From Sporopachydermia quercuum (Eukaryota; Ascomycota; Sporopachydermiomycetes; Sporopachydermiales; Sporopachydermiaceae), in NCBI GenBank assembly GCA_001599295.1, contig BCGN01000010.1:186001-250000 (forward strand): a stretch of 64,000 bases of DNA. Direction: 5' to 3'. The translations under genes were made by a program, and so were the position numbers. The notes under the pieces are model-generated. The model made no database searches, was not told the origin of the DNA, and saw only the letters and a program-made list of their open reading frames with translations. Shown here in pieces: positions 1 to 40,162 of the stretch (position 1 is its first letter; each line of letters begins with the position of its first letter).

Positions 1-3000
1 GTTGTCTGATATTGCGCCTCCTCCTTCAAGCTCATCTATGCCTATCATCTGTAGTAGCAATAAGGCAGCATGGAATAGCATTATATGGATATGATTAGGT
101 ACGTATCGCAGAGCATCCAACACATCTTTGTCCAATGTGGCTAGTCGAAGTACTGTCAACGCTGCAACGAAAGCTATTTTGTCCCAGACATCAACTGGCC
201 AGTTTGGTTGAGATGATTGCGATTGATCTTCTGCTGTGGCTATGTTTGCTTCATTTACATGATATACCGTCTCATTACTATCGAAATTTCCAGAATCTTT
301 CAATCTTCGGATGGCGGAAGAGTTAATTTGCATTTTAGCAAAATTATAGTGAATAAATGCAGACTTAGATGCCCAGCACAATATTGCTCCTTCGTTTATT
401 TCATTACCTGTGTTTAATAATTTATTAGGACTAAGCACACATGCCCAAGAAGCCATCCATTTGTACAATTTAATATCAGTTTGCCACAGAATTCCCAAAT
501 TTGAAGGGGTAATAATGTTCCATCCTCTTTGACCAAAGAGTAATTTGACTGCATGATTATATTCTACCTGTGATACAAGTCTTATATCTGAGAAGAAACT
601 GCTACTCAAGGGTTTGTCATACCCTTCGTTTGAGAGATCTTCATACTGTGGGATGAACTGTTTTTGATGACCTTCATGAGAATATTGGTTGTTATCCTGT
701 CTGTCATCTACANCATGAGAATTTCGCTGACTATTCTTAGGCTGGCTTTCAAGGGTTCTTTCCTTCTCGCTCTGCACTTGTTCTTCCATCCTAAGCAAAT
801 CAGGAACTAGCTTAATATCTGAACCGATTTCTTGCATCAAGCTTGATGATTGTTTACTGTAACAAAGAGGTGAATGCAATCTTAATCTTTCATCTTTCTC
901 CTTTATTAAAGTGCGACACTGAATCTGGGTCGTTTCTTCTCTCGGGATCAAAGGGGGTTTGTTAAATGTGATACTTTGATGTCCATCAAGTATATATAGC
1001 AAGCACCATAGCCTTAACCGTTCATCACCTGAAATGGCACTGCCGGCACTAATTCTATTGTTATCTTCCAGATTGTTACCAGGTACATTTCTTCTATTTT
1101 GCTCTCCAGAAATATTTAGTCTTAAAACAGTTGCCAGCTGAAGAGCAATTCCCACAAGCAAATTGCTATCAGGTAGCCAAAATCCCCCTATGCAGAGAGC
1201 AACAATTGCATCAATTATTTCTGCTTCGGATTTTGGTCGAGAGAACAAAATGTCTTTTGATAGCCGCTGCATTTCTAATTGTAATTTACTATTCAGGTGG
1301 TTTAAATAAGGATGATGCATTGATGCTACCGTGCAGATTGCAGCAACCAATATTGGCGAACGAATCCATATATTAGGCAATGAATAGTTTGATACTCTAA
1401 AGTCAAACAAATAAGAAGAAATGGTGATATCAAAGAAGGAAAAAAGGTCAGAGGCTTGATCAAAAGTAATTAAGCCGTTTGTGCGTAAGTCCTTTTGTGG
1501 ATTGTTTTTAGTTTTTGCAATGAAAAATGGGATTTGTGTTTGTATGGCTCTTGCGCGTCTATGGTTCGAATTGTAAACTTTATCGCTACTATTGTAATGA
1601 TTCTTATTGTTATAATTGTTGGGTTTAGTTTTTATATTATGAGGGGTATCAGCAGTCTGTCGCTGATCAACAAAGCATTGTTGCTGATGGGGATAATATG
1701 GTTCTTGAGAGTTCTGATGTCGAGTCTCGGTCAGGGGATGGTTCATGTATTGTAAATTGGGAATATTACGCAAACTGAAAGGATCTGGTAGTTGGAAGCC
1801 GTCAGGGTTGTGCTTTCTACCTTGAGGGCTGCCCTCTGGTGATGGATAATTTTCAACTGATAAACTATTCCCTCTGTAAAGAGGATAGGAAAGATTAAAA
1901 TTAAAATTATAATCATTGTTAACATCATCTGGGATTTCATTGACTTGTTTTTGCTTCTGCTTTTTTTGTCTATCTTGGAGCTCATTTGGATTCTTGGGCC
2001 GCTTTATTGGCGTTCCTTCTTCAATTGCCATTCCTACTCCAAATAAATCATGGGGAGGATCAGCAGAGCTCTCATTATAATCAGCCAAAACCTCCCCATA
2101 GTTAACACTGAAAATATCAGAGTTTTGTTTCAATGAGTTGCCCTTTATTGCGTTCTTTGGACCGCCGGAATTCTGGCGAGTAAATCTCTCACTGATGTAT
2201 TTGCTGTTAGGATCCCCAGTGGAATCACTCCTTAGGTGAGAAATTTTTTTTTTCTTTTTTACTTTCAGTATGATTCTTTCCTGTAGATAAGGGAGAGTTG
2301 ATCGATGAAAATGAATCGGTTCTATGATTAGCTGAACTTCTTAGTAATTGAGGCACGTAGTTATTGTTTTGGTTGAAGAAAGAAAGATTCTTTTGCAAGA
2401 TGTTAGCATGAATATCAGCTTGTGACATCTCTGAATTATTTCCGAATGGTACCTAAGATGCTGATCGATGATGCGAGTGTTGATTATCATGATTGAAAGC
2501 ACCACTTGTATCCAAACTTTCGGAAATACATGAGAGGCTAGCTTGAGGTGATTTGNTATATGAAAACTGCTGAGCCTTGTCTGATGAGTTGAGGGAAGAC
2601 GGATCATTTTCACAGCCAGTAGGTACTATATTTTTTGTGTCGTGAAGACGGGAATTATGCTCGGTAGTATACTGATTATTAGCATTAACATTTGTGTTGC
2701 TTGCTTATGATTCCGGAGATGAAGTTAAAAGATTCAGAATGTTATCCAAAGTTTTTCCAAACTTATCCAAACGATTCTCCATTGTGTTCATCCAACCAGA
2801 GTCAGGTATGCTTGTCGGATTTGCTGAAATACTTTCAGTATATTCTGGGATCTTCATTGAAAACACACATTCCAAGTTCTGAGCTTGACACCTTCTACAC
2901 GATGCTTCACCCGAATATTCGCATCGAATCCGAAAAAGTGTATAAATTATCAGTTAGTTTTCAGAATTGTTCATCTTGAAACGAAGCAAATGTAAAAGAT

Positions 3001-14711: not shown

Positions 14712-16456
14712 TTATAATCTCTTGATAACTTCTTCGGTAAAGTTCTTGGTGGAAGAAGATCCCTTCAAATCCTTGGTTCTGTTTTCAGGACCACTAGCAA
14801 TGGTCGTCAAAACAGCTTTTTCAATCTTGTCAGCATACTGATCTAGATGCATATGTCTCAACATCATGCAAGAAGATAATAGCAAAGCTGTAGGATTGGC
14901 CAAACCCTTACCAGCAATATCAGGAGCAGATCCGTGGACAGCTTCGAAAATACTGACCTTATCGCCCATATTACCAGAAGGAGTCAATCCTAAACCACCA
15001 ATAAGACCAGAAGACAAATCGGACATAATGTCACCGTACAAGTTAGGCATAACCATGACAATATCCTTGTAAGGAGTAGGGTCAGTGACCATTTGTAAAC
15101 AGGTGTTGTCGATCAATTCAGAGGACAATTCGACATCAGGATACTCCTTAGCGACATCTCTGGCAGTTTGTAAGAATAAACCGTCAGCAAGCTTCATGAT
15201 AGATGCCTTGTGTACGACTCTAACTCTTGGCTTACCAATAGATTTGGCATATTCAAAAGCATATCTAATTACTCTTTCAGAAGCTTCCTTGGTGATCAAC
15301 TTGATAGATTGCACTACACCTGGAACAACGGTGTGTTCAATACCAGAGTATTCACCTTCAGTGTTTTCTCTAATCAAAACAGTGTCAACACCATCATAAG
15401 GGGTCTTGAAGCCAACAACTGACTTACAAGGGCGAACATTGGCAAATAAGTTGAAAGTTCTTCTCAAAGTCAAGTTAAGAGAAACGTGACCTTTACCAAC
15501 AGGAGTAGCCAAAGGTCCTTTCAAAGCAACCAAGTTCTTCTTGACTGATTCAACAGCTGTAGGGGGAATGGTGGTCTTACCATCAACGAAGATAGGAGTG
15601 ACATCGACAGGTTCCCAAACGATAGGAACCTTAGCAGCAGAGTAAATGTCCTTGACAGCCTGGGAGATCTCAACACCAATACCATCACCCTCAATCAAAG
15701 TAACAGTGTATTTGCCCTGTTTTTCTTGTTAGTATTATGCTCTTCAGAGAAAATGTTCAGCTGGCTCGATCGACGGTGGGGAACATATTCTTAGGTGCTC
15801 TGTGTTGAAGAGATGCATGGGGTGATGAGATCCGGATAAAGGGTATAACTGTATGGTATATTTGTAGAATTATTACACTCGAGGAAATATTCATTTTGGA
15901 CCTAAATTCCAATCAGGATAAACAACTCATGATAACATTCATAGTGACATTCATGTACTTCCTCAATTGGTTGATTGATCGATTGATTGATTGATTGCTA
16001 ATTATCTGCCATACCCACTGTTCGCCAGTGCTATATAAATAGGCTCTTTCTCAAACAGTTTTCATCCAATATATCAATCAACCCTCAGAGGATATTATTT
16101 TCATCCAGAACTATACTCATTACATATCATTTTCCATAACCTCTTTTCTCCTAAAGATTTCCGAAGAATATTCATTCGAATGCAACCAACACGTCCACCG
16201 ACGAATTGGAAGGCCATCGCCAATCTTCCATAATAAACATACATCACTGTTCTTCTTTCCTTCAAATGAAGCAACAGAAGTAGCATAAGTTCTGGCGTAT
16301 GATCTAGCAGCCTATAATCGTCAAATTGTTAGTAGTCCAACTAATATTTTGATTCTCATCCCTATTTCTCTCTTGATCTACCAATATCCGTCTACTTACC
16401 AAAGCTCTGCTCGACGAGATCAAAGATGATCGAAACATTTTTCTACTGGACATCAT
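14712..16456 (-). CDS. IDH2: NAD-dependent isocitrate dehydrogenase subunit 2, mitochondrial
   Basis: The catalytic subunit of the Idh1/Idh2 octamer converts isocitrate to 2-oxoglutarate in the matrix (TCA cycle). There are three exons: 16400-16456 (19 codons), 16243-16311 (23 codons) and 14712-15716. They give 376 aa, against 369 in S. cerevisiae. Introns are 88 nt (GTAAGT, branch ACTAAC, TAG) and 526 nt (GTATGT, branch TACTAAC, CAG). Exons 1-2 encode an acid-poor, Arg/Ser-rich presequence ([12 protein letters not shown]...[12 protein letters not shown]). Exon 3 carries [12 protein letters not shown], the substrate loop [23 protein letters not shown], the catalytic Lys region [10 protein letters not shown], and the metal/NAD region [12 protein letters not shown]...[20 protein letters not shown] and the C-terminus EEVIKRL match Idh2 better than Idh1. 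The contiguous frame opening at TTG 15698 is not the true start. Confidence 0.97.
15960..15998. repeat. TTGA/ATTG tetranucleotide tract inside IDH2 intron 2
   Basis: ATTGATTG-type repeats with one interruption (gattgatcgattgattg). A TATA-like CTATATAAATAG follows at about 16031. Both lie within the 526-nt intron 2 of IDH2. Confidence 0.6.
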
Positions 16457-18311: not shown

Positions 18312-20462
18312 TTATATAACTTTCTTCATACAGCTAGCAGCTCCGTTTCCATCTCTTACTACCCCAAGTTCCAGTAGCTTTGCAAACGCATTGGAAAAGT
18401 CTCTGAAGAATGCGGATTGATCATTAGCATATATTTCTACCCATTTTTTAAAGTCGTTATCTTTCATTAATGCCATATCTGTTTTAAGCATCATGATAGG
18501 TTGCCCATTTGAGTCTTCTGGTTGTCTTGTAATGTACTGTTGATTACCTGACCCACTAACCTCTACCAGTTTCCATTGATTATTGTTATAATTGTTCATT
18601 AGATTGATGAAAAACGAATTGTCAAAGCTGGTTGGATGTTCGTCCCAAGTTCCATCATAACCGGATATTTTATGATGGCATCTACCTACCGTATGTGCTC
18701 CTATCAGCGCTACTATTTCACCATCACTGAAGCCCATTCTGTAAAACACATCTCGAACATGATCTGCCCCATATTTTGCAATAGGTAATCTACCGTTAGG
18801 AGGGACATAGTCCGATATATCTGAATTTTCGTCAGCTGCAATGTCTTCTATGTCTTTTCTTCCTGGTGACCAAGGCACTTCTGGTCCTCCCATGTGTTCA
18901 ATGGCAACAACACCTGCCAAAGTCCAGAGGTCAGCATAGCTAATCCAATCATGCTTTCCCTTCACAGGTTCTAGAATATTCACGGCATTTTGAAGACCTT
19001 TATTTGCTACATCAGATAGTTCTGGATTGTATCTGAAGGTTAGGTTAGTATTTTAGTAGCGCAAAGTACTAGTAGGTATTTGTTTGCGTTTCGAGTTAAC
19101 ATACCTCATTGTTGCACCATTTGATCCGCCTGTACCAGTGTTCCTATCAAAAGTGCCAGCTGCATGCCACGCCAATCTGACAATGACAGGACCATAAGAT
19201 CCATCGTCATAATTCTGATCGTCGAGTATATCAGCAATTGACTGTCTAACATTCTTGTAAGGGTCGGAAGATTGGAATAGGTTGTGAGGTTTCTTGAACT
19301 TTTTAGAAAAGGAACTTGAAAGCTTGTAGTTCATTTGCAGTTTATTGAAATGATGATCGGTCAATTTGGATGATTTCAATTTGTCACGACTTATTTTATT
19401 TCTCTTCATCTTCTCTATCAAATTCTGTCTATGTAGTTTACCTTGCGATGGTAAAAAGTTACCATCAGTGGTAACGACTCTTCGCTCTGATTTTAAAATT
19501 GATTTTGGGATTTCATAATCACTTTTGAAAGAGTCATTGATATCGTGGTTAACAGTTTTGTATTCAAGACTTGAGATCCTTTTCTTTGGCTTGATAACCT
19601 TGTTAGAAGAATGAACCCCCAAGTCCACTTTTGATGGTTTAGCTGGCTCAAACTGAATAAGTCCAGACAATGGTTTCTTCTTCAGGTCTTGGCCGAAGCT
19701 AGATTTCCTCATTGATAATTGCATATCTGATGTGTAAGAGAGATTGCCACTAAGTTTTGGTGTTGACGAAGAATACGATTCATTGCTTTTGCTTGGCCAG
19801 GATTGAAAAGGCTTTTCTGTTAGTTCTTCTTTTGTATGTTTACCACTTGTTGGCTTTTTTGCGCTTAAAGAAAATTCTGTGTCATGAGAAAATGATACCG
19901 AAGGTTTCGTTTCTTTGATGTCCTTGGGAATTTTGATCATTTTGCATAGAATATATTCAACCTTTTCTTTCCATTTAGAAAGCCCTTCCATGAGTAAGTC
20001 AAACTCTGCTTTACAAAATTTTGTCCCTTTTAAATGGTAAATCTTCCTCTTGAGTGTCATAATTATATCTTGCTTGATAAACTTATCTTTTTCTTCTTTA
20101 GCCTTGAGAATAAACCACTTAACTTTGGGAATTATAATGATTAATTTTTCTGCTATTTTGGAGAATATTTTCTCCTTGATCATCAGAAGCTTGCAGATAA
20201 GATCAGTGAGCTTTTCAAATATTATGCATACAAGTCTGATGAGATTAACAATAATAAGCATAATAATAACTATAGGCATAGTTATTATATGAGCAATAAT
20301 CTTCTTGATTTTCTGTATAAACATCTTGATCTTTTTGATTTTTGCAGCTTTCTTTTCTTTTTTCTTAGCAAGCTTACCTTTAACCTTATGATTCTTTGGC
20401 TTTTCAAATTTTGCTTTTTTGCTGTAAGCTTTGTGCTCCAGCTTATCAGAAAACTCCTTCAT
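18312..20462 (-). CDS. Class I heme peroxidase (cytochrome c peroxidase-like, Ccp2 type) with a long basic, membrane-type N-terminal extension
   Basis: Two exons, 19105-20462 and 18312-19032 (72-nt intron: GTATGT, branch TACTAAC, CAG), encode 692 aa. Residues 400-692 form a complete peroxidase domain. The distal pocket is Arg429, Trp432 and His433 (VRLAWH), the proximal His is 566 (GAHTVGR), and Trp582 is the equivalent of CCP Trp191. An Asp follows in LKTDMAL. Wording such as [13 protein letters not shown] and [17 protein letters not shown] is closer to the cytosolic fungal Ccp2-type 'putative heme-binding peroxidase' than to mitochondrial Ccp1. Residues 1-400 are unusual for the family: a Lys-rich start ([14 protein letters not shown]), a strongly hydrophobic stretch at about 55-83 ([19 protein letters not shown]), a second at about 105-120, then a Ser/Lys-rich linker. 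I infer a membrane-tethered peroxidase scavenging H2O2; which membrane is unknown. The frame is open through the junction, so a fusion is more likely than two genes. Confidence 0.85.
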
Positions 20463-22286
20463 GTTTATTAATGTTTATATTGGTGATGATTTGTTCAAAT
20501 CTGAACTTTATAAGTAAATCAGCTTCTGTTAAAGTGATAAGTAGCGCCAATGGGAGAATGATACAATGCGCTGCTTTAGAAGACACAGATAATGATAATT
20601 TCTTTCATTCAGCGTTACTTTTAGAGGTCTTACTGCTCTTTCTTTCTCGCAGTGCTACTCTCAACGCTTCCAAATATCCTGTTGATATACGTTCATATAT
20701 GCTGATATTCGTTAATAGAAGTGATGAAGAATATACAAATAGAAAAGGAAAAAGAGGAAAAAATTAAGATAAATAGAAAGAGGGGCTTGAACCAACTTGG
20801 CGGCTAAGTACACAAACGTCTTTGTCAACCTAGCGAGGAGATAACACAAATGTAGTTTCACGTGCTGTCAGTTGTAGATTTAAAAAGCGGTAAATGGACT
20901 TCTCCATCGTGTTTCCGAATCTCAGAAGCTGGGGGCTAATGCAATGAATAATGTTTTGAGTAAACTGTAGGTTGCTAAATAAAACTCTCCTAGTTTTGTT
21001 GATTCTCAAATCGATTTCGCCCTTTTTTGTATCAGTTGATNTGTGTGCGTGATGTATTTGGAGTGTTCAAACAATCAAAGTCTAATTTTCAAATTCCCAA
21101 TTGGGTACTGTAATTGACTACTTTTAAGTTGAAACTTTATTGACATTTCGCTCAGCAATGCGAGAACCAGATATTTGAAGCTCTTTTTTCTCGCTTAATT
21201 ATCACCTTGAGCTGAACAGTGAAAACCCAAATTGCCAGTTGCTAAATTGCAAATCTCAAATCGCTTTGGTGACATCCCTTTTATATATTTTCAAAAAAAA
21301 AAAAGATTGCTAAATTGAAAAATATAGCATATATTAAATATAGACTAGATAGCAAACAAAAGTGAAAGCTGTCAAAAGAAAGGAATACTGTTCAGTAGGT
21401 ACTTACTACCTGATAATAGTAGACTCAACCACTTGCAANAACTGTGTTGTAGTAGAGAGAAATTGGTTATGCTGTGACGAATGCGTAATCAAGTTTCAAA
21501 TCAAAATGGTTAGGAACGCTAAAATTTCTCTAATTAGTTTGATTCATGAAAAAAAATTGCAATCTCATTGCTTGTTAGTCTAGTAACTATCAAAAAGTAA
21601 CTATCAAAACTGTTATCAATTCGCAAAGACGACATATGCTTCAAACTAATAGCATCTCAACTGCCAAATACGACAACATTCCATACTGAAGTAACTATTA
21701 TAAATGCAGAAACAAAACTATCTTCTAACAATATATTACTCATTAGTATCTNTTAGCATTTTTATTGCCTGAACTTGTTGATTGTATGTTATCCGGTTAC
21801 ACCTATTTGTCTTGTTGTTCTAGATATTCTAATATATTCATTTCGGATGCAACCTAATGGAGTTTGTTTTATATGCTAAGCTCAAGGATTATTCATATAT
21901 TTACCACTAAAATGTAAGATCTGAAGTTTTACTTACATTCTCTATAGCTTTTTNTGCTACAGTTCTTTTCATTCAGTTTACGTTCGATAAGTTCCGTAAG
22001 TCATTCAGTCTGTTTAGTTAGTAATAGAGTACAGTCGTTGTGAGAATAGAAATTTTATATTCTATCCAAGTTCGATTGATCTCATAGACTAGTACAAGCT
22101 CAGCTTTCTTATTTATAAAGTTTAGGTTATTAGAATAACAGACAAGCATTGGAATATTTGTATACATTTGAGAAAGACACAACGGAAAGTATATACTTTA
22201 TAATTTCCTGATTTAACTTTGTATTTTCCAATATTCATGTTATGTTCTCCGTTTTACTATATCTCCGATATTTCGCACATCTTTTT
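20463..22286. other. Long spacer between the peroxidase and TRS120
   Basis: 1.8 kb, AT-rich, no credible gene. A CACGTG box lies at 20859-20864 (TTTCACGTGC), about 400 bp upstream of the peroxidase start. A tRNA-like B-box at about 20780 was examined and rejected. Confidence 0.5.
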
Positions 22287-25200
22287 CTATAAAACAACAA
22301 TGTGTAACGGTTCCCTCTGTATAACAACCGATGGCGGCAATGTAAATACTCCATCAGATGCCTTCATACCATATCTCAGCTCTTCTACATCACTATCAAC
22401 GGGATCAACAATTTCCTGAAACATTGACCCCCATTCATACTCTCCTTTCTCTAAAAACACAACTCCAATATCCAGTGTCAATGATTCTCCAGGTTCAATT
22501 GGAGGATAGATAGACCTTTGCAGGACTCCGTCAAAAAAGATCTTTCTATCTGCTGCCAACACACCCGAAGTGTCATTGACTGTTATATTCAAATTGCTTG
22601 ACCCAGCATCGTTATTGGTAGATCCTTCATTGTTTAGATTAACATACGAAGAGCTGATTCTATTGCCTATGTTACTGTTANTGTTATTGTTATAGCCGGG
22701 GATATTCGCATTGCTGTTACCTTTGATTTGCCCGATTGTTCTACTGCGTAACAATGGAATATGTCTAAGCATTCCTTTGATTGGTCGATTAGTTCTATTG
22801 ATAATAACTGCTTTCAGATTCACAAATTCATCAACTGCAACATTCCAATGGGATCCTCTATTTTCCAATAAGGATTTAGTGCTATCAACAGCCTCACAGA
22901 TCTTTTCGTCCTTGCTGTTCTCCCCTTTATTGACTCCTAGCACGCAATCAGTCAATGATAGCTCAATGCCTATATTTTCAACCTGAAGAACAGATATCAT
23001 GGATGTCGACAGTCTTATACCGCGCAGTTCAACATATCCTTTACGCGATGATCCATCCTTGCTGCTGCTTTCAACCTCTTCCCATTCACCTTTAATATGC
23101 CGGAGAAGCTCTCTTCTATACCAAAAGGCCTCGCGGATAGTTTTCATTTCCTCTAAAGAATAGCCTCCGGAGACACCACTGGCTGCCATTTTCTTAGCTT
23201 TTGGCCGAAGGCTAGGTACAGGTTTTAAAGAAAAGCCGTGCGGAAAGTTGATCCGTTTCACTGGCAGAAGGAACCGTTTGCTGACTTTGCTGGGAATCAA
23301 TGATTCTACTGCAAACGAGCGCTTTACAGCACTGTTAATTTCGCAATCATACTCGTCTGTAGTGAAAGGTGTAGTGCTCATTTCCAGCTTTACCTTCATA
23401 CTTTTGCCCCAGCTATTTCGGAGATCCAGGACTAGTAAACAATAATCTGTGATTTTTTCAGTGTTATGAGCGAGCTCCTGGAGGAAATGGGCAAGTCTCC
23501 CATAGGAAGGATCCACTTTCAAGGCTTTCCCACTGCTATTCTGATCAACGAACACATCAACAGATTTCAGTATTTTCCCGCTCAGGGGGATTATATCGCA
23601 GCCTGTAAGTTCTATGCTTGAATGAACTGTAATATTAACAGGTATGGAAAAGGATCTAGTAAACAAAGAGGCATCACCGGGATCTATTAAATGGCCGTAT
23701 TGGAACTTGATGGTGGCATGGTTCATTCCTCGTTTGCCGAGCACTTCGAATTCGAGTGTTTTCTTTTGTTTTCTATTCAAATGGCTGAATGGTTTGCTGT
23801 TGGGCCGGAGTTTCACTGCTTGTTTCCGGAGCAGAAAATACTCGAGTTCAAATACTTCGTTTGGGGGCAAAGTGGAACCGGCACCGTCCTGAAGCAGNGC
23901 CGCTGTCAGCGGCTCTTCCGTCGAATCCAAGACAGAGATCTCAATGTAGTTGGCGTCGATGATATCGGAAGTGTTGATGAGCGAAACGGAGAAGATGGTT
24001 GTCTGGCCCTCTAAAAGCATGAGCCACCCCTGATTCAGGGACACGTCGGAAACAGAGATAAGTGGCTGAGAGGGGATCACCTCGAAGGAGAGAAATTTGC
24101 ATTTCGCGCCTGGATGGGTTGCCAAATCGGTCAAATCCCCTGTCGCCGGAAGCTCGGAAGCTTTTCCTTTTACGGAAAGGGGTCCGAAATATGAGCGGTT
24201 GCTGAATAAGGCAAATCCTCCGATTTTCTTCACTTTTTCGCTTAAAAAGTGTGAAATGCCGAGAACTGAAGCAACCAATGGGAAAAACTGTTTTCCTAAT
24301 CCAGCAATATCTAATACACATCCGATAATTAGAGTTTTCCCATATCCTTGAGGTCGAACGTTTACAGAAACATCAGTGACCGAAAAAGGTGATATATGAG
24401 CAAATCGAGCCGACGAGTTCGTCTCAAGAAGGATTCTCGGTTTTCCAGAAACGGCACCTTCTATTCCCAAAACATCACATACTTCCCTACTGCTGTCTGT
24501 GACCAAATCAATACTATTCACAGTTATGCCAAACCCAAACGGATTCTGTAACGAAACAATGAATTCCACGTCCTCGTTCTGGATTAAAAGCTTCTCAACT
24601 GAGTGAGTTTTTGGCTCCTTTGTTTCAAATGGATTGTAAATCAAAACATCCTCATCGTTGTTTTTGATTCCCTGTTTTAGCTTCTTCAATTTCGTTTGAA
24701 CCCAATTGTTGTGGTTGGCTTTGTTGATGTTTCTTACAACGTAGGGATCCCAGTAAATAAACTGGGGGAATGTGTCGATAGCAGAAGAACCAGAAGAAGT
24801 GCGATCGCCATTTCTAGTGCCATTGTTACCATTGCTATTATTCCTGTTGTCAGGACTCAAATGAATCCTTTTCAATGATTCATTGATCATTTGATACAAT
24901 GTGAGCTGGTATTCCTTTGTCAATGTGTCAGAAAGAGAATATAACATATAACATGCCAGTTTGATCACTGTGCCGGAATCCTTGATTTTTGTGCACAGAT
25001 TTAATACCAACATGAGAATGTTTCTCTGGATGGTTCGCCATTTGGGTACATTTGCTTTATAATGGGCAACTACAACAGTTTTGCTATCGCTGTCGTCGCT
25101 GCTGTTGCTGCTGATTCTATCAACTCTTTCGTAGATATCTCCAATGCCATAAACACTGAGTGTCTCCTGCAGAAACTCATGAAATGTCTGCTGTGAGTCC

Positions 25201-27347
25201 GAGCCCAGTAGGCCTATTATGTTATCCGCAGAGTTGCTGTAGATAGTATTAATGCTGTTTGCTATAGTGCTGACACTCATAACGGTACTGTTTCCTGCCG
25301 ATGGCTCATTCAACCGTTGGCTGGCCTGCTGAGCTTGCTGGGCCTGCTGGGCCATCTGGGGAACCAACGTAGTAAACAACAGTCTTATAACGTTAGCTCT
25401 CTTCCTATGAAACCCAAGCAAATCATACACACTGGCCATGCAACAGTAGATATCGCATTTCATTTCAATAGTTAGTAATTCATTAGGAAATTGAGCTGTA
25501 AATAGTAAACTCACTATTGAAGACACCGAGAACTTGTTGATCAGCGCTGGAGGCTCATTAATAGCTTTTGGCAGCTGTTTCACCAGTGGGGAGTTGGTGA
25601 TAATTGAATCGAGAAAAATTGGAGTTAAGATGTTGCCGGAAAGAAATAGCAGGGTCAAAAATTTGGCTAGTTTAAGGACCAGAAACGCACAGATCTGGAT
25701 GCAGACGATGGATTCCTCATCATTTGAAGGTAATTGGGACCCAATTGAGGTCAAAAGGTTATAAATATGGTAGATATGGCTCTGGATCAAGTCGTGAATC
25801 AGCTCAAAGGAATAATCCGAGTTGTTTTCTGTTCTTCCTGGCGACATTGGACGCTCGCTGCTTAAAACGTTAAGCTGGGATGAGCCGAATGAGTCCGCCG
25901 TGGTAAACGAGTTTCGCGGGGTAGAATTATAGCTTGGGACGAGCGTTGCAGTAGATCCTGTGGTAGATCCTGAGATGGAAACAGAGCCGGATGGCGCTGG
26001 CGACCCCGCGGTGGAGCTTTTCGTACGAAAAAGCTTGTTAAGGCCAGTGGTAGGTTTTTCTTTCTCCTCCTCCACCAACAGAACCTTTGGCACGGAAACA
26101 GGCTGGCCAATGTATAATAGCAGTAAAGAGGAGACAATGAAGCTGTCAATGGCGCTGGCGAGGATTGCTGAGTCTAAAGCAGTGCCATAATTGCTTGTCA
26201 CAATCGACGGGATAGAATTTACACCAGTAGATCCAGTGGAAGCTGAATTGGAGTTGCTACTAGTGGTAGGGAAGCCGGACACGGTTTCCCAACTGGGACA
26301 GTTCATGCCAAGAATTACACCCGCGGAACGGAATAATGAAATGGATTCCAGGAATTCTTCTTTTGCTTGGGCGTAGTGGCCTGCTAGCAGGAAGCAAGAA
26401 GCTCGGAAACGGGCTTTTCGAGCTTTAGAGATTATCTCACGGCGTTCTGAAGATGATAAATGCTGGACTTTCATCAAACTATTCAAGGAGTCAACAGAAA
26501 TTCCGGGACGCGTGCTCAGATTTACACCAGAGTTTCCAGAGGTGTTGCCCGATGTATTGCTGCTCCCAGAGGTCCCGCTAGAAGACGTACCAATAGAAAT
26601 AGACCCCCCGGAAAGCATCCGCGACAGACGTCTGCTGTTGGAGCGTTTGGGTAGCGAACTAGTCCCGTTGCCCAGAAATTTATAGGGCTTGGAACCATTT
26701 GGCGAAACGTTTAGAACAGACGATGTGATTCGCGTGGTGGTGCAGTAAACAGCTAGTTCTGCGAGAAACTCCGTTGACACGTCACACATCACCATTTCCA
26801 GTGAGGTGATATTAGATTCCGTAGTAGAAGGTATATACAAACAGTGAGGAAGCTGCAGAGTAGATATTTTACTCTTTGGAGTATCAAAAACAAGTATTTT
26901 ATGCACAATTGCCAACGGGAACTTCCCCCGCAGTTTGCTCATTGAGGACTCAATCATTTCGACAGATATATTGTTCTCATACTTGGTGATACCCAGTACA
27001 CATAGAGTTCTCTGGCTTGGATCTAATTCACTGTAGGCATAGGAGATAGTTTCCGGTTGAGAAGAAATGCGGAAATTATATAGGATTCTGCCGCTGGGGA
27101 AACTATTTGGCGCAAACAGGTTTCTCTCTGGTCTTTTGTCAGGGGTCACATCGCCAAGCCGAACTTGGTAAGCAGGAAGGATTCTTGCTACAAAGGCATC
27201 GAAATCAGATTTTTTCAGAGCGTTTGGGGTCGTGGGACACAGAACTGTTTTCACTCTAGCTGGATTAACAAAGGAATAGTTATCCACAGCTTTTGCCGAT
27301 GATTTTGAAGAGGAAGGCATTTTGAGGAAATAGCGAGAAGAGTCCAT
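22287..27347 (-). CDS. TRS120: TRAPPII complex subunit Trs120
   Basis: Trs120 (TRAPPC9 family) with Trs130 converts TRAPP into TRAPPII, the GEF for Ypt31/32 at the late Golgi. It is a single 1686-aa exon, against 1289 in S. cerevisiae. The N-terminal family block VNPARVKTVLCPTTPN (about 28-43), FDAFVARILP and the SGRILYNFRIS region are clear, as are SRARKARFRASCFLLAGHYAQAKEEF (TPR-like) and the C-terminal Ig-like blocks (NPFGFGITVNSIDLVTD, LTLDIGVVFLEKGEYEWG). The extra length comes from low-complexity inserts: a Ser/Gly/Asn stretch at about 230-290, Ser-rich segments at about 345-500, a Gln/Ala run (QQAQQAQQASQ) near 675 and an Asn-rich segment near 1590. Two ambiguous bases are present (about 22681 and 23900). 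The start is the first ATG; an internal Met 9 codons later is an alternative. Confidence 0.93.
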   Translation of the reverse strand: MDSSRYFLKMPSSSKSSAKAVDNYSFVNPARVKTVLCPTTPNALKKSDFDAFVARILPAYQVRLGDVTPDKRPERNLFAPNSFPSGRILYNFRISSQPETISYAYSELDPSQRTLCVLGITKYENNISVEMIESSMSKLRGKFPLAIVHKILVFDTPKSKISTLQLPHCLYIPSTTESNITSLEMVMCDVSTEFLAELAVYCTTTRITSSVLNVSPNGSKPYKFLGNGTSSLPKRSNSRRLSRMLSGGSISIGTSSSGTSGSSNTSGNTSGNSGVNLSTRPGISVDSLNSLMKVQHLSSSERREIISKARKARFRASCFLLAGHYAQAKEEFLESISLFRSAGVILGMNCPSWETVSGFPTTSSNSNSASTGSTGVNSIPSIVTSNYGTALDSAILASAIDSFIVSSLLLLYIGQPVSVPKVLLVEEEKEKPTTGLNKLFRTKSSTAGSPAPSGSVSISGSTTGSTATLVPSYNSTPRNSFTTADSFGSSQLNVLSSERPMSPGRTENNSDYSFELIHDLIQSHIYHIYNLLTSIGSQLPSNDEESIVCIQICAFLVLKLAKFLTLLFLSGNILTPIFLDSIITNSPLVKQLPKAINEPPALINKFSVSSIVSLLFTAQFPNELLTIEMKCDIYCCMASVYDLLGFHRKRANVIRLLFTTLVPQMAQQAQQAQQASQRLNEPSAGNSTVMSVSTIANSINTIYSNSADNIIGLLGSDSQQTFHEFLQETLSVYGIGDIYERVDRISSNSSDDSDSKTVVVAHYKANVPKWRTIQRNILMLVLNLCTKIKDSGTVIKLACYMLYSLSDTLTKEYQLTLYQMINESLKRIHLSPDNRNNSNGNNGTRNGDRTSSGSSAIDTFPQFIYWDPYVVRNINKANHNNWVQTKLKKLKQGIKNNDEDVLIYNPFETKEPKTHSVEKLLIQNEDVEFIVSLQNPFGFGITVNSIDLVTDSSREVCDVLGIEGAVSGKPRILLETNSSARFAHISPFSVTDVSVNVRPQGYGKTLIIGCVLDIAGLGKQFFPLVASVLGISHFLSEKVKKIGGFALFSNRSYFGPLSVKGKASELPATGDLTDLATHPGAKCKFLSFEVIPSQPLISVSDVSLNQGWLMLLEGQTTIFSVSLINTSDIIDANYIEISVLDSTEEPLTAXLLQDGAGSTLPPNEVFELEYFLLRKQAVKLRPNSKPFSHLNRKQKKTLEFEVLGKRGMNHATIKFQYGHLIDPGDASLFTRSFSIPVNITVHSSIELTGCDIIPLSGKILKSVDVFVDQNSSGKALKVDPSYGRLAHFLQELAHNTEKITDYCLLVLDLRNSWGKSMKVKLEMSTTPFTTDEYDCEINSAVKRSFAVESLIPSKVSKRFLLPVKRINFPHGFSLKPVPSLRPKAKKMAASGVSGGYSLEEMKTIREAFWYRRELLRHIKGEWEEVESSSKDGSSRKGYVELRGIRLSTSMISVLQVENIGIELSLTDCVLGVNKGENSKDEKICEAVDSTKSLLENRGSHWNVAVDEFVNLKAVIINRTNRPIKGMLRHIPLLRSRTIGQIKGNSNANIPGYNNNXNSNIGNRISSSYVNLNNEGSTNNDAGSSNLNITVNDTSGVLAADRKIFFDGVLQRSIYPPIEPGESLTLDIGVVFLEKGEYEWGSMFQEIVDPVDSDVEELRYGMKASDGVFTLPPSVVIQREPLHIVVL

Positions 27348-39254: not shown

Positions 39255-40162
39255 ATGAGACCCACTTACATCAGAGCTGGCTTCTTATCGAAGTTCACTA
39301 AATGTAAGTTAAGCAATTGATTTGCCAATTGATGAATCATTCAAGTTTTGTTATTATTCTATCGGAGAATAGTAGGGAATAGTAGAGTATAGAATACAAA
39401 CGGCTCTTGTTTTTACACTCGTCTATCTGGTTTGAAAGATGATTTTGAAAGATCTTTTGATTCTTCCATCCGACTAGAATTATCACTAACATACACTTAG
39501 CACTAAGACCCCCTGTTCTGCCCAATGAAATAACAGTTCTAGATTTCAAAAGACCAAACGAAATAGACAAATTAGTTTCTGGATGCGATCAAGATATTGG
39601 AGGTTATAGCACTGTTGATTTATCGGTTGATACAAAGNAAAATGCTTTGAAGTTTTCTGGTGTGTTGAACCTTGATACTCCTGTGGCTAAACCGGAGGTT
39701 CAGTTTTCAGGTTATTCAATGTTCAGAACAAGGAAACAAAAGACTGCTACCACTTTCTTTGGCAAAGATTCCTATTGGGACTGGAATAATTTGACACATG
39801 TTGCATTAAAGGTGAAAGGAGACAAAAGGAAGTATTTCGTCAATATTCAGGCGGAATCACCATTGCCACAAGATGTATATCAGCACAGATTGTTTCTACA
39901 TAACCCTGGGGAATGGGAAATTGTTATGATTCCACTTAATGATTTTGTGTTGACAAACTTTGGACTTATACAGGAACAACAAGGAATAGATAAATCACGG
40001 GTTAAGACAATTGGAATAGGTCTTTTGGATAAGAAGTATGGACCTTATTGCTTGTACATTGATTGGATTAAAGTGCTGGTCGGGGAACCACTAAAAGAAA
40101 AAATAAAGGAAGCACATGAACCTTCGCTTGGGCAAGGGGAGATTGTTCCTGAGAGCTTATGA
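39255..40162 (+). CDS. CIA30: Complex I intermediate-associated protein 30 (NDUFAF1 family)
   Basis: Mitochondrial assembly factor for respiratory complex I. Exon 1 (39255-39303) encodes MRPTYIRAGFLSKFTK, a short basic presequence-like start. Exon 2 (39501-40162) begins CA-CTA-AGA after branch CTAAC and TAG; the intron is 197 nt with donor GTAAGT. The product is 236 aa. The CIA30 domain is clear: VLDFKRPNEIDKL, CDQDIGGYSTVDL (the D-x-x-x-GG-x-S signature), FSGVLNLDTP, YWDWNNLTHVALKVKGD, and VMIPLNDFVLTNFG. An ambiguous base (39639) falls between those blocks. A contiguous frame that begins at a TTG at 39647 would lose the GG-x-S signature, so the spliced model is preferred. Its presence implies the species has, or recently had, complex I. 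Confidence 0.91.

What the first reader, a model, noticed from the sequence alone, without database searches (positions are those of the whole stretch)
18312..20462. Cytochrome c peroxidase-like enzyme fused to a basic, membrane-anchor-like N-terminus
Seen: a 692-aa spliced frame with a complete class I peroxidase domain (R429, W432, H433, H566, W582) only after residue 400. Residues 1-400 are Lys-rich, with a 25-30-residue hydrophobic stretch, a second shorter one, and a Ser/Lys-rich linker. Known: fungal Ccp1 has a short mitochondrial presequence and Ccp2-type peroxidases have little or none. Inference: a membrane-tethered peroxidase, possibly coupled to a local H2O2 source. It is the strongest candidate here for an undescribed protein architecture.
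Basis: partly seen in the sequence, partly recalled or inferred. Interest (0 to 1): 0.75.

Follow-up and report, generated by a model that had tools for sequence, protein, structure and literature searches.

The report
Peroxidase with lysine-rich membrane-anchor-like front
A yeast gene joins a complete hydrogen-peroxide-destroying enzyme of the cytochrome c peroxidase family to a long lysine-rich front part, with one membrane-inserting stretch, that resembles nothing in the databases searched; it is probably a membrane-tethered peroxidase, a new variant of a known enzyme family whose location still has to be tested.

Summary
One spliced minus-strand gene (exon 1 20462-19105, a 72-nt GTATGT...TACTAAC...CAG intron 19104-19033, exon 2 19032-18312) encodes 692 aa. 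Residues ~400-692 are an intact class I heme peroxidase (PF00141). Residues 1-395 are 21% Lys, with one segment (55-83) that scores as membrane-inserting; the second hydrophobic stretch does not.

The N-terminal part matched nothing in the protein database (0 of 7,997 scored candidates), PDB, Pfam or its own genome.

The genome has two further class I peroxidase matches: a mitochondrial Ccp1-type and a short one ending in SKL, i.e. peroxisomal-looking. The long protein is a fast-evolving third paralogue that the trees do not place; a residue shared only with the SKL copy hints at kinship. It lacks the SKL ending and a mitochondrial-type presequence. Its heme-edge and cation-loop residues are unusual (Ile for Arg/Asn; Thr/Asp/His/Asp).

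Best reading: a membrane-tethered, non-mitochondrial H2O2-reducing peroxidase. Membrane, topology and electron donor are unproven; no sister species could be searched. Coupling to a local H2O2 source has no evidence. N-terminally anchored class I peroxidases are known in Leishmania relatives, so this is a new variant of a known kind. In passing: 56 of 69 rows of the short copy's clade end in a peroxisomal-type signal.

The parts
18312..20462 (-). whole gene, ATG to stop; 692-aa protein after splicing
19105..20462 (-). exon 1 (1358 nt), residues 1-452 and the first two bases of codon 453
19033..19104 (-). 72-nt intron, GTATGT...TACTAAC...CAG; in frame with one TAA if retained
18312..19032 (-). 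exon 2, rest of the peroxidase domain and stop codon
20304..20462 (-). residues 1-53: Lys-rich tail, net charge +17, no Arg, five acidic residues
   Evidence: sequence and net charge
20214..20300 (-). residues 55-83: the only segment of the protein that scores as membrane-inserting (dG about -1.3); preceded by and overlapping a basic amphipathic helix (residues about 43-60)
19278..19895 (-). residues 190-395: Ser/Lys-rich linker, net +21, presumably disordered
18315..19277 (-). residues 396-692: class I heme peroxidase domain (interrupted by the intron)
19164..19178 (-). distal motif R429-L-A-W432-H433
18693..18695 (-). proximal heme ligand His566
18621..18692 (-). residues 567-590: proximal loop with Ile575 (Arg or Asn in 161 of 163), Trp582 and the Thr567/Asp583/His585/Asp590 combination found only here among 163 sequences
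18312..18326 (-). C-terminus KKVI plus stop: no PTS1; KKxx-like, a weak pointer to ER retrieval

Best explanation
A single-gene third class I heme peroxidase of this yeast. A catalytic domain of the CcP family is carried at the C-terminus of a new N-terminal module: a Lys-rich tail, one membrane-inserting helix (55-83), amphipathic basic helices and a ~200-residue basic linker. It most likely works as a membrane-tethered H2O2-reducing peroxidase outside the mitochondrial intermembrane space, probably at the ER or peroxisomal membrane. It would remove H2O2 by the usual Compound I cycle, with the linker letting the enzyme reach out from the membrane. It probably arose by duplication of a peroxisomal-type short peroxidase, with loss of the C-terminal PTS1 and gain of the N-terminal module. 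Shown: the predicted gene structure, intact catalytic residues, no homologue of the N-terminus in the searches made, no PTS1. Inferred: membrane insertion, compartment, topology, electron donor, origin.
For: Continuous 395-codon frame running into the peroxidase domain, with one consensus intron inside the domain. The long protein keeps 80 of 84 positions that are at least 95% conserved in the other 162 rows, against 79 of 84 for each of its two paralogues, so it looks constrained. AlphaFold model of the domain: pLDDT 84.4, pTM 0.87; the 50 PDB rows shown are all cytochrome c peroxidase entries. Residues 55-83: dG -1.27, between the choline-transporter-family control (-3.08) and eight soluble-family proteins of the window (+1.42 to +6.9); the TB2/DP1 control scored +3.01 although its family is membrane-bound (recalled), so the scale also misses real anchors. 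No mitochondrial-type presequence: 1-53 has no Arg and five acidic residues, unlike the Arg-rich start of the own Ccp1-type copy. The short paralogue ends in SKL, and 56 of 69 rows of its clade, itself included, have a PTS1-like end. Pro636->Lys is shared only by the long and the short copy among 163 sequences.
Against: Membrane insertion rests on hydrophobicity alone; the fold of residues 1-200 came from a single sequence (pLDDT 64.4, pTM 0.29) and has no meaningful match. Both flanks of the helix are basic, so the topology is ambiguous. The trees do not place the long protein: not rejected are sisterhood to the SKL copy (p-AU 0.236), to that copy's 11-row clade (0.189), to the clade of the Ccp1-type copy (0.425) or to that copy itself (0.152). 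The KKxx or KxKxx ending occurs in 5 of 85 open frames, this one included. No transcript, protein or sister-species evidence.
Confidence: 0.55

Rival explanations
1. Mitochondrial enzyme after all: the basic N-terminus with the helix acts as a very long bipartite presequence/stop-transfer signal, leaving the peroxidase in the intermembrane space with cytochrome c, as for Ccp1.
For: A basic amphipathic helix (window of residues 43-60, moment 0.65, +6) sits at the start of the membrane segment; the topology N-matrix/C-intermembrane space would match Ccp1 (recalled); the clade of the Ccp1-type copy is not excluded by the tree (p-AU 0.425).
Against: Residues 1-53 contain five acidic residues and no Arg; the genome already has an ordinary Ccp1-type copy with an Arg-rich start; a ~200-residue basic linker after the segment has no counterpart in that copy. 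No targeting predictor was available.
Confidence: 0.2
2. The functional enzyme is short and soluble: an internal promoter or start (Met377) gives a 316-residue peroxidase, and the long frame is a minor product.
For: Met377 lies about 20 residues before the domain and would give a length near the 285 residues of the short copy; intron retention would give a truncated 469-residue product without the proximal half.
Against: 395 codons stay open upstream, which suggests selection on the protein; the ATG at 20462 is the first one after an in-frame stop.
Confidence: 0.15
3. Nuclear or nuclear-envelope protein: the Lys-rich tail is a nuclear import signal and the peroxidase protects DNA or acts in redox signalling.
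For: [18 protein letters not shown] Lys cluster in the tail (sequence).
Against: Motif-level only; no homologue, and no localisation tool was available.
Confidence: 0.08
4. Assembly or gene-model artefact: two unrelated frames joined by chance.
For: Some N-terminal extensions in database relatives look like merged gene models, e.g. P0010 and P0012 (my reading).
Against: No N in the gene; the 395 codons and the distal heme motif sit in one exon without any splice between them.
Confidence: 0.02

Closest known systems
Saccharomyces-type mitochondrial cytochrome c peroxidase (Ccp1; fungal CcP subfamily II)
   Same: Fold and catalytic residues; best PDB matches by sequence and by structure.
   Different: No Arg-rich presequence; 395-residue N-terminus instead of a short leader; Ile575 instead of Asn (numbering recalled); inserts at 521-525 and 601-604 relative to the fetched relatives.
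Short non-mitochondrial CcP-type peroxidases ('putative heme-binding peroxidase'; my equation with fungal CcP subfamily I), including the own C8 copy
   Same: Domain 54% identical to C8; Pro636->Lys shared only with C8.
   Different: Those I fetched are mostly short and 56 of 69 clade rows end in a PTS1-like tripeptide; this one has no PTS1 and has the N-terminal module; C8 has Arg where this one has Ile575.
Anchored ascorbate/CcP-type peroxidases of Leishmania major and relatives
   Same: N-terminal anchoring transmembrane domain on a class I peroxidase (PMC7237987, passages); in Leishmania-related species the Arg172 position is Tyr or Phe, also not Arg (PMC9358470, passages).
   Different: This N-terminus is Lys-rich, 395 residues and without a detected relative; other lineage; likely convergent (inference). 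The T. cruzi enzyme of PMC9358470 has Asn there.
Engineered cation-site CcP variants (PDB 1krj calcium site, 1jdr potassium site, 1jci engineered cation loop)
   Same: The three best sequence matches; 1krj also first by Foldseek, by a small margin; 1krj has Thr, Asp and Asp aligned with T567, D583 and D590.
   Different: Natural protein; His585 stands where 1krj has Thr; metal binding untested.
Bdelloid Rotaria peroxidase P0024
   Same: 382 residues before a class I peroxidase domain, with a hydrophobic segment.
   Different: N-terminus gave no BLAST hit with this one at E<=10; the hydrophobic segment lies directly before the domain.

Membership tests
Class I heme peroxidase, PF00141 | Significant Pfam match over the whole domain | tested here: met
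   Exon 2 frame 132 bits against a cut-off of 27; genome search joins both exons, 149 bits over 2-237 of 237. Exon 1 alone is under the cut-off (18.3 bits).
Class I heme peroxidase, PF00141 | Distal Arg/Trp/His and proximal His/Trp/Asp | tested here: met
   R429, W432, H433, H566, W582, D638.
Mitochondrial CcP (subfamily II) | Mitochondrial leader with Arg-rich presequence | tested here: not met
   No Arg and five acidic residues in 1-53, by inspection; no targeting predictor was available.
Mitochondrial CcP (subfamily II) | Groups with mitochondrial CcPs in the tree | tested here: inconclusive
   Not in the clade of the Ccp1-type copy in the best tree, but this is not rejected (p-AU 0.425).
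Mitochondrial CcP (subfamily II) | Uses cytochrome c as donor | not testable with these tools
   Needs enzyme assay.
Ascorbate peroxidase | Arg at the Arg172 position | tested here: not met
   Ile575; Arg in 139 and Asn in 22 of 163.
Short non-mitochondrial CcP (subfamily I) | Groups with the short copies | tested here: inconclusive
   In the best tree on one side of a branch with the wider 16-row clade, support 71/89, not starred.
Short non-mitochondrial CcP (subfamily I) | PTS1-like C-terminus (my observation, not an accepted criterion) | tested here: not met
   Ends KKVI; 56 of 69 clade rows have a PTS1-like end.
Membrane-anchored peroxidase (Leishmania-like) | N-terminal transmembrane segment | tested here: inconclusive
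   One segment with predicted dG -1.27 by a recalled, simplified scale; no experiment.
Secreted class II/III or hybrid B peroxidases | Disulfides and N-glycosylation sites in the domain | tested here: not met
   Domain has 2 Cys and 0 sequons.

The most novel reading that the evidence does not exclude
A yeast lineage evolved a new membrane-targeting module, built de novo or too diverged to recognise, and fused it to a duplicated peroxisomal CcP-type peroxidase. The result is a third, membrane-surface peroxidase with a metal-stabilised proximal loop and a donor other than ascorbate, possibly other than cytochrome c: one genome would then serve mitochondria, peroxisome matrix and an ER/peroxisome membrane with three dedicated CcP-family enzymes.
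Probability: 0.25. Interest if true: 0.6.

Novelty: new variant of a known kind. Interest (0 to 1): 0.42.

Why it matters
If the tether is real, a fungus has independently built a membrane-bound class I peroxidase as Leishmania relatives did. It would be a natural test case for how moving one enzyme between compartments changes its electron donor. The three paralogues in one genome carry different address labels (Arg-rich presequence, SKL, N-terminal module), which makes the compartment question directly testable by tagging. The side result, that the short 'probably cytosolic' CcP subfamily mostly ends in a peroxisomal-type signal in the rows sampled, bears on where H2O2 is handled in many fungi.

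Tried and rejected
Homologues of the N-terminus: none in the protein database (region 40-400, 7,997 scored candidates, E<=1), PDB (E<=10), Pfam (E<=1) or own genome (E<=10). The seven weak BLAST hits among the 178 fetched proteins (best E 0.38) I take as compositional. Limits: admit only proteins of 0.55-1.75 times the query length and need shared 5-residue words; Lys- and Ser-rich words probably crowd the candidate list; eukaryotic genomes were not otherwise searchable, so the sister-species test was not done.

Internal repeats or a transposon origin of the N-terminus: only short diverged repeats, one copy. Two-membrane-span hairpin: the second stretch scores +6.73, rejected as a span; a monotopic hairpin inside 55-83 is possible but untested. 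Secretory-lumen peroxidase: disfavoured by absent sequons and only two Cys in the domain, not excluded. Oxidative-stress promoter: no Yap1-like TTACTAA/TTAGTAA in 1 kb upstream, against two sites in each paralogue's upstream kilobase (motif recalled; about 0.4 expected by an estimate in my head, so weak). KKxx as ER signal: 5 of 85 open frames of 150 codons or more have KKxx or KxKxx, this one included, so weak. H2O2 source: six ferric-reductase/NOX-family matches and two catalase matches in the genome, on other contigs. Codon statistics: with stop codons left in, dicodons separated the frame; with them left out they did not, and the earlier codon-usage score did not either, so these are not used as evidence. 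First IQ-TREE run timed out. The 163-row FastTree put the long copy beside a chytrid sequence (P0118) at 0.71 support, which the mixture-model tree did not keep; I call the position unresolved. Rows dropped before the 163-row counts: P0041-P0058, 18 of the 178 fetched proteins, which I took for catalase-peroxidases plus one rice arogenate-dehydratase/peroxidase record.

Full report
GENE. The finding is a minus-strand gene at 18312-20462. Exon 1 (20462-19105) and exon 2 (19032-18312) are parted by a 72-nt intron with GTATGT, TACTAAC and CAG; splicing gives 692 aa. The intron is a multiple of three with one in-frame TAA, so retention would end the protein after 469 residues. No undetermined base lies in the gene. 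CTG reads as Leu: Leu562, coded by CTG, is Leu in 163 of 163 aligned relatives. The nearest ORFs of 150 aa or more on either side are an isocitrate/isopropylmalate dehydrogenase frame (14712-15698) and TRAPP subunit Trs120 (22287-27347). The genome (16.4 Mb, 12 contigs) is unnamed; its RPB2 is closest in PDB to the 5x4z entry (2,163 bits), then to entries of the Saccharomyces protein (2,036 bits) (I recall 5x4z as a methylotrophic yeast), consistent with a yeast.

IS THE LONG N-TERMINUS REAL? Residues 1-395 and the distal heme motif share one exon, so no splice guess is involved. Their frame has no stop in 395 codons while the other five frames of the stretch have 14 to 48 stops; 2,000 dinucleotide shuffles gave at most 194 open codons. 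A dicodon statistic gave 0.192 against -0.52 and -0.44 in the other two forward frames, but that comparison profits from stop codons; without them it is 0.061 against -0.286 and 0.047, so it does not discriminate. The long open frame is the argument.

WHAT IS IN IT. Residues 1-53: net +17, no Arg, five acidic. Residues 55-83: strongly hydrophobic, best 19-mer dG -1.27 by a simplified biological scale (values recalled). Controls from the window: choline-transporter family -3.08; TB2/DP1-family protein +3.01 (a membrane family, recalled, missed by the scale); eight soluble-family proteins +1.42 to +6.9. The window 43-60 is a basic amphipathic helix (moment 0.65, charge +6). Residues 190-395: net +21, Ser/Lys-rich. 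Lys content is 28% in the richest 120 residues, against at most 20% in 44 sampled ORFs; 21% over residues 1-395 against at most 14.9% in 29. AlphaFold from the single sequence of residues 1-200 gives one long helix 25-123, block pLDDT 82-91 for residues 31-80 but pTM 0.29, with no PDB match at E<=0.001.

HOMOLOGY. The full protein found 58 proteins at E<=0.001, each covering 33-43% of the query, about the size of the domain. Residues 40-400 alone: none of 7,997 scored candidates at E<=1. PDB: none at E<=10. Own genome: only itself at E<=10. Of the 178 relatives fetched (the second list shows the best 120 of 5,244), three have 280 or more residues before the domain, P0024, P0012 and P0010; none of the three gave a BLAST hit with this N-terminus at E<=10. 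The search has limits (length window, exact words), and eukaryotic genomes could not be searched by DNA.

THE ENZYME. Heme residues are intact. The long copy keeps 80 of 84 near-invariant positions; the two paralogues keep 79 each. AlphaFold with 56 sequences: pLDDT 84.4, pTM 0.87; the model includes 24 intron-derived residues, where the low-confidence stretches 59-68 and 70-82 lie. The 50 Foldseek rows shown, of 334 at E<=10, are all CcP entries, first 1krj by a small margin. Two oddities. At the position of APX Arg172 (CcP Asn184; numbering recalled) stands Ile575, alone among 163 sequences with Arg 139, Asn 22, Ala 1; PMC9358470 (passages) says this Arg is essential for ascorbate activity and that Leishmania-related species have Tyr or Phe there. 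And the proximal loop has Thr567, Asp583, His585, Asp590, a combination seen in no other of the 163 rows; 1krj, a CcP with an engineered calcium site, has Thr, Asp, Thr and Asp at those places (alignment; title). Metal binding is inference only; PMC9358470 notes that a proximal cation might destabilise the Trp radical.

PARALOGUES AND ORIGIN. The genome has three PF00141 matches, a lower bound. C2 is a 368-aa Ccp1-type with an Arg-rich start and a hydrophobic stretch (by eye); C8 is a 285-aa short type ending KSKL. Domain identities: long-C8 54.2%, long-C2 48.9%, C8-C2 54.6%. Trees: 163-row FastTree and 49-row IQ-TREE mixture model, rows being hits of the long protein and so biased towards it. 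The long protein has a long branch (0.9; own C2 0.77; median 0.25) and no starred group. AU tests, named after the tree was seen, do not reject sisterhood to C8 (0.236), to C8's 11-row clade (0.189), to C2 (0.152) or to C2's 20-row clade (0.425); with the wider 16-row clade of C8 it already stands together at 71/89. Pro636->Lys is shared only by the long copy and C8 (159 of 163 have Pro), a hint of common origin. [quoted passage not shown]

ADDRESS SIGNALS. Of 69 rows in C8's FastTree clade 56 (C8 included) end in [SAC][KRH][LM]; in the 64-row clade of C2, 3; in the remaining 30 rows, 13, the long copy not among them. None of 85 open frames of 150 codons or more in 264 kb of the genome ends so (some of these frames may not be genes). 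So C8 looks peroxisomal and the long copy has lost or never had that label; it ends KKVI, and 5 of the 85 frames, this one included, share the wider KKxx/KxKxx form.

MECHANISM. Most likely: the helix 55-83 holds the protein on a membrane; the basic linker lets the domain sit away from it (inference); the domain reduces H2O2 by Compound I/II (family knowledge). The donor is probably not ascorbate at the Arg172 site. The topology is open: a single span with the more basic N side inside predicts a cytosolic N-terminus and a peroxidase on the far side; absent sequons, two Cys and the basic linker favour a cytosol-facing domain, which would need a monotopic insertion. I put membrane tethering at about 0.55-0.6 and any one named membrane below 0.4.

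KNOWN OR NEW. N-terminal anchors on class I peroxidases are known in Leishmania major and relatives (PMC7237987, passages). Ten paper searches of the held library (listings seen) showed me no fungal enzyme of this architecture; the library lacks most subscription papers. I file it as a new variant of a known kind, seen so far in one genome.

Noticed in passing
L002:1492-2349 (G000 C8) and clade rows: The short paralogue ends KSKL, and 56 of 69 rows of its CcP clade (itself included; many rows unnamed, the named ones mostly fungi) end in a PTS1-like tripeptide, against 0 of 85 background frames. The subfamily described as probably cytosolic (PMC4232752) looks peroxisomal. Paper searches (listings only) showed no such report.
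   Followed up: partly
window 18621-18692: Natural Thr/Asp/His/Asp combination in the proximal loop, like a CcP with an engineered calcium site (1krj).
   Followed up: partly
window 19033-19104: The intron is 72 nt, in frame, with one TAA: retention would give a 469-residue protein that keeps the membrane segment but lacks the proximal half of the enzyme, a possible off switch.
   Followed up: no
P0024 (Rotaria socialis, 650 aa): Bdelloid rotifer class I peroxidase with a long N-terminal part and a hydrophobic segment just before the domain; another possible anchored peroxidase.
   Followed up: no
window 20463-21462, L002 and L003 upstream: TTACTAA/TTAGTAA (Yap1-like) sites: none in the kilobase upstream of the long gene, two in that of each paralogue.
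   Followed up: partly
window 39647-40162: CIA30 (complex I assembly) match, suggesting that this yeast may have kept respiratory complex I.
   Followed up: no
window 713-63528, 37 single positions: 37 isolated N bases in the window, none inside this gene.
   Followed up: no
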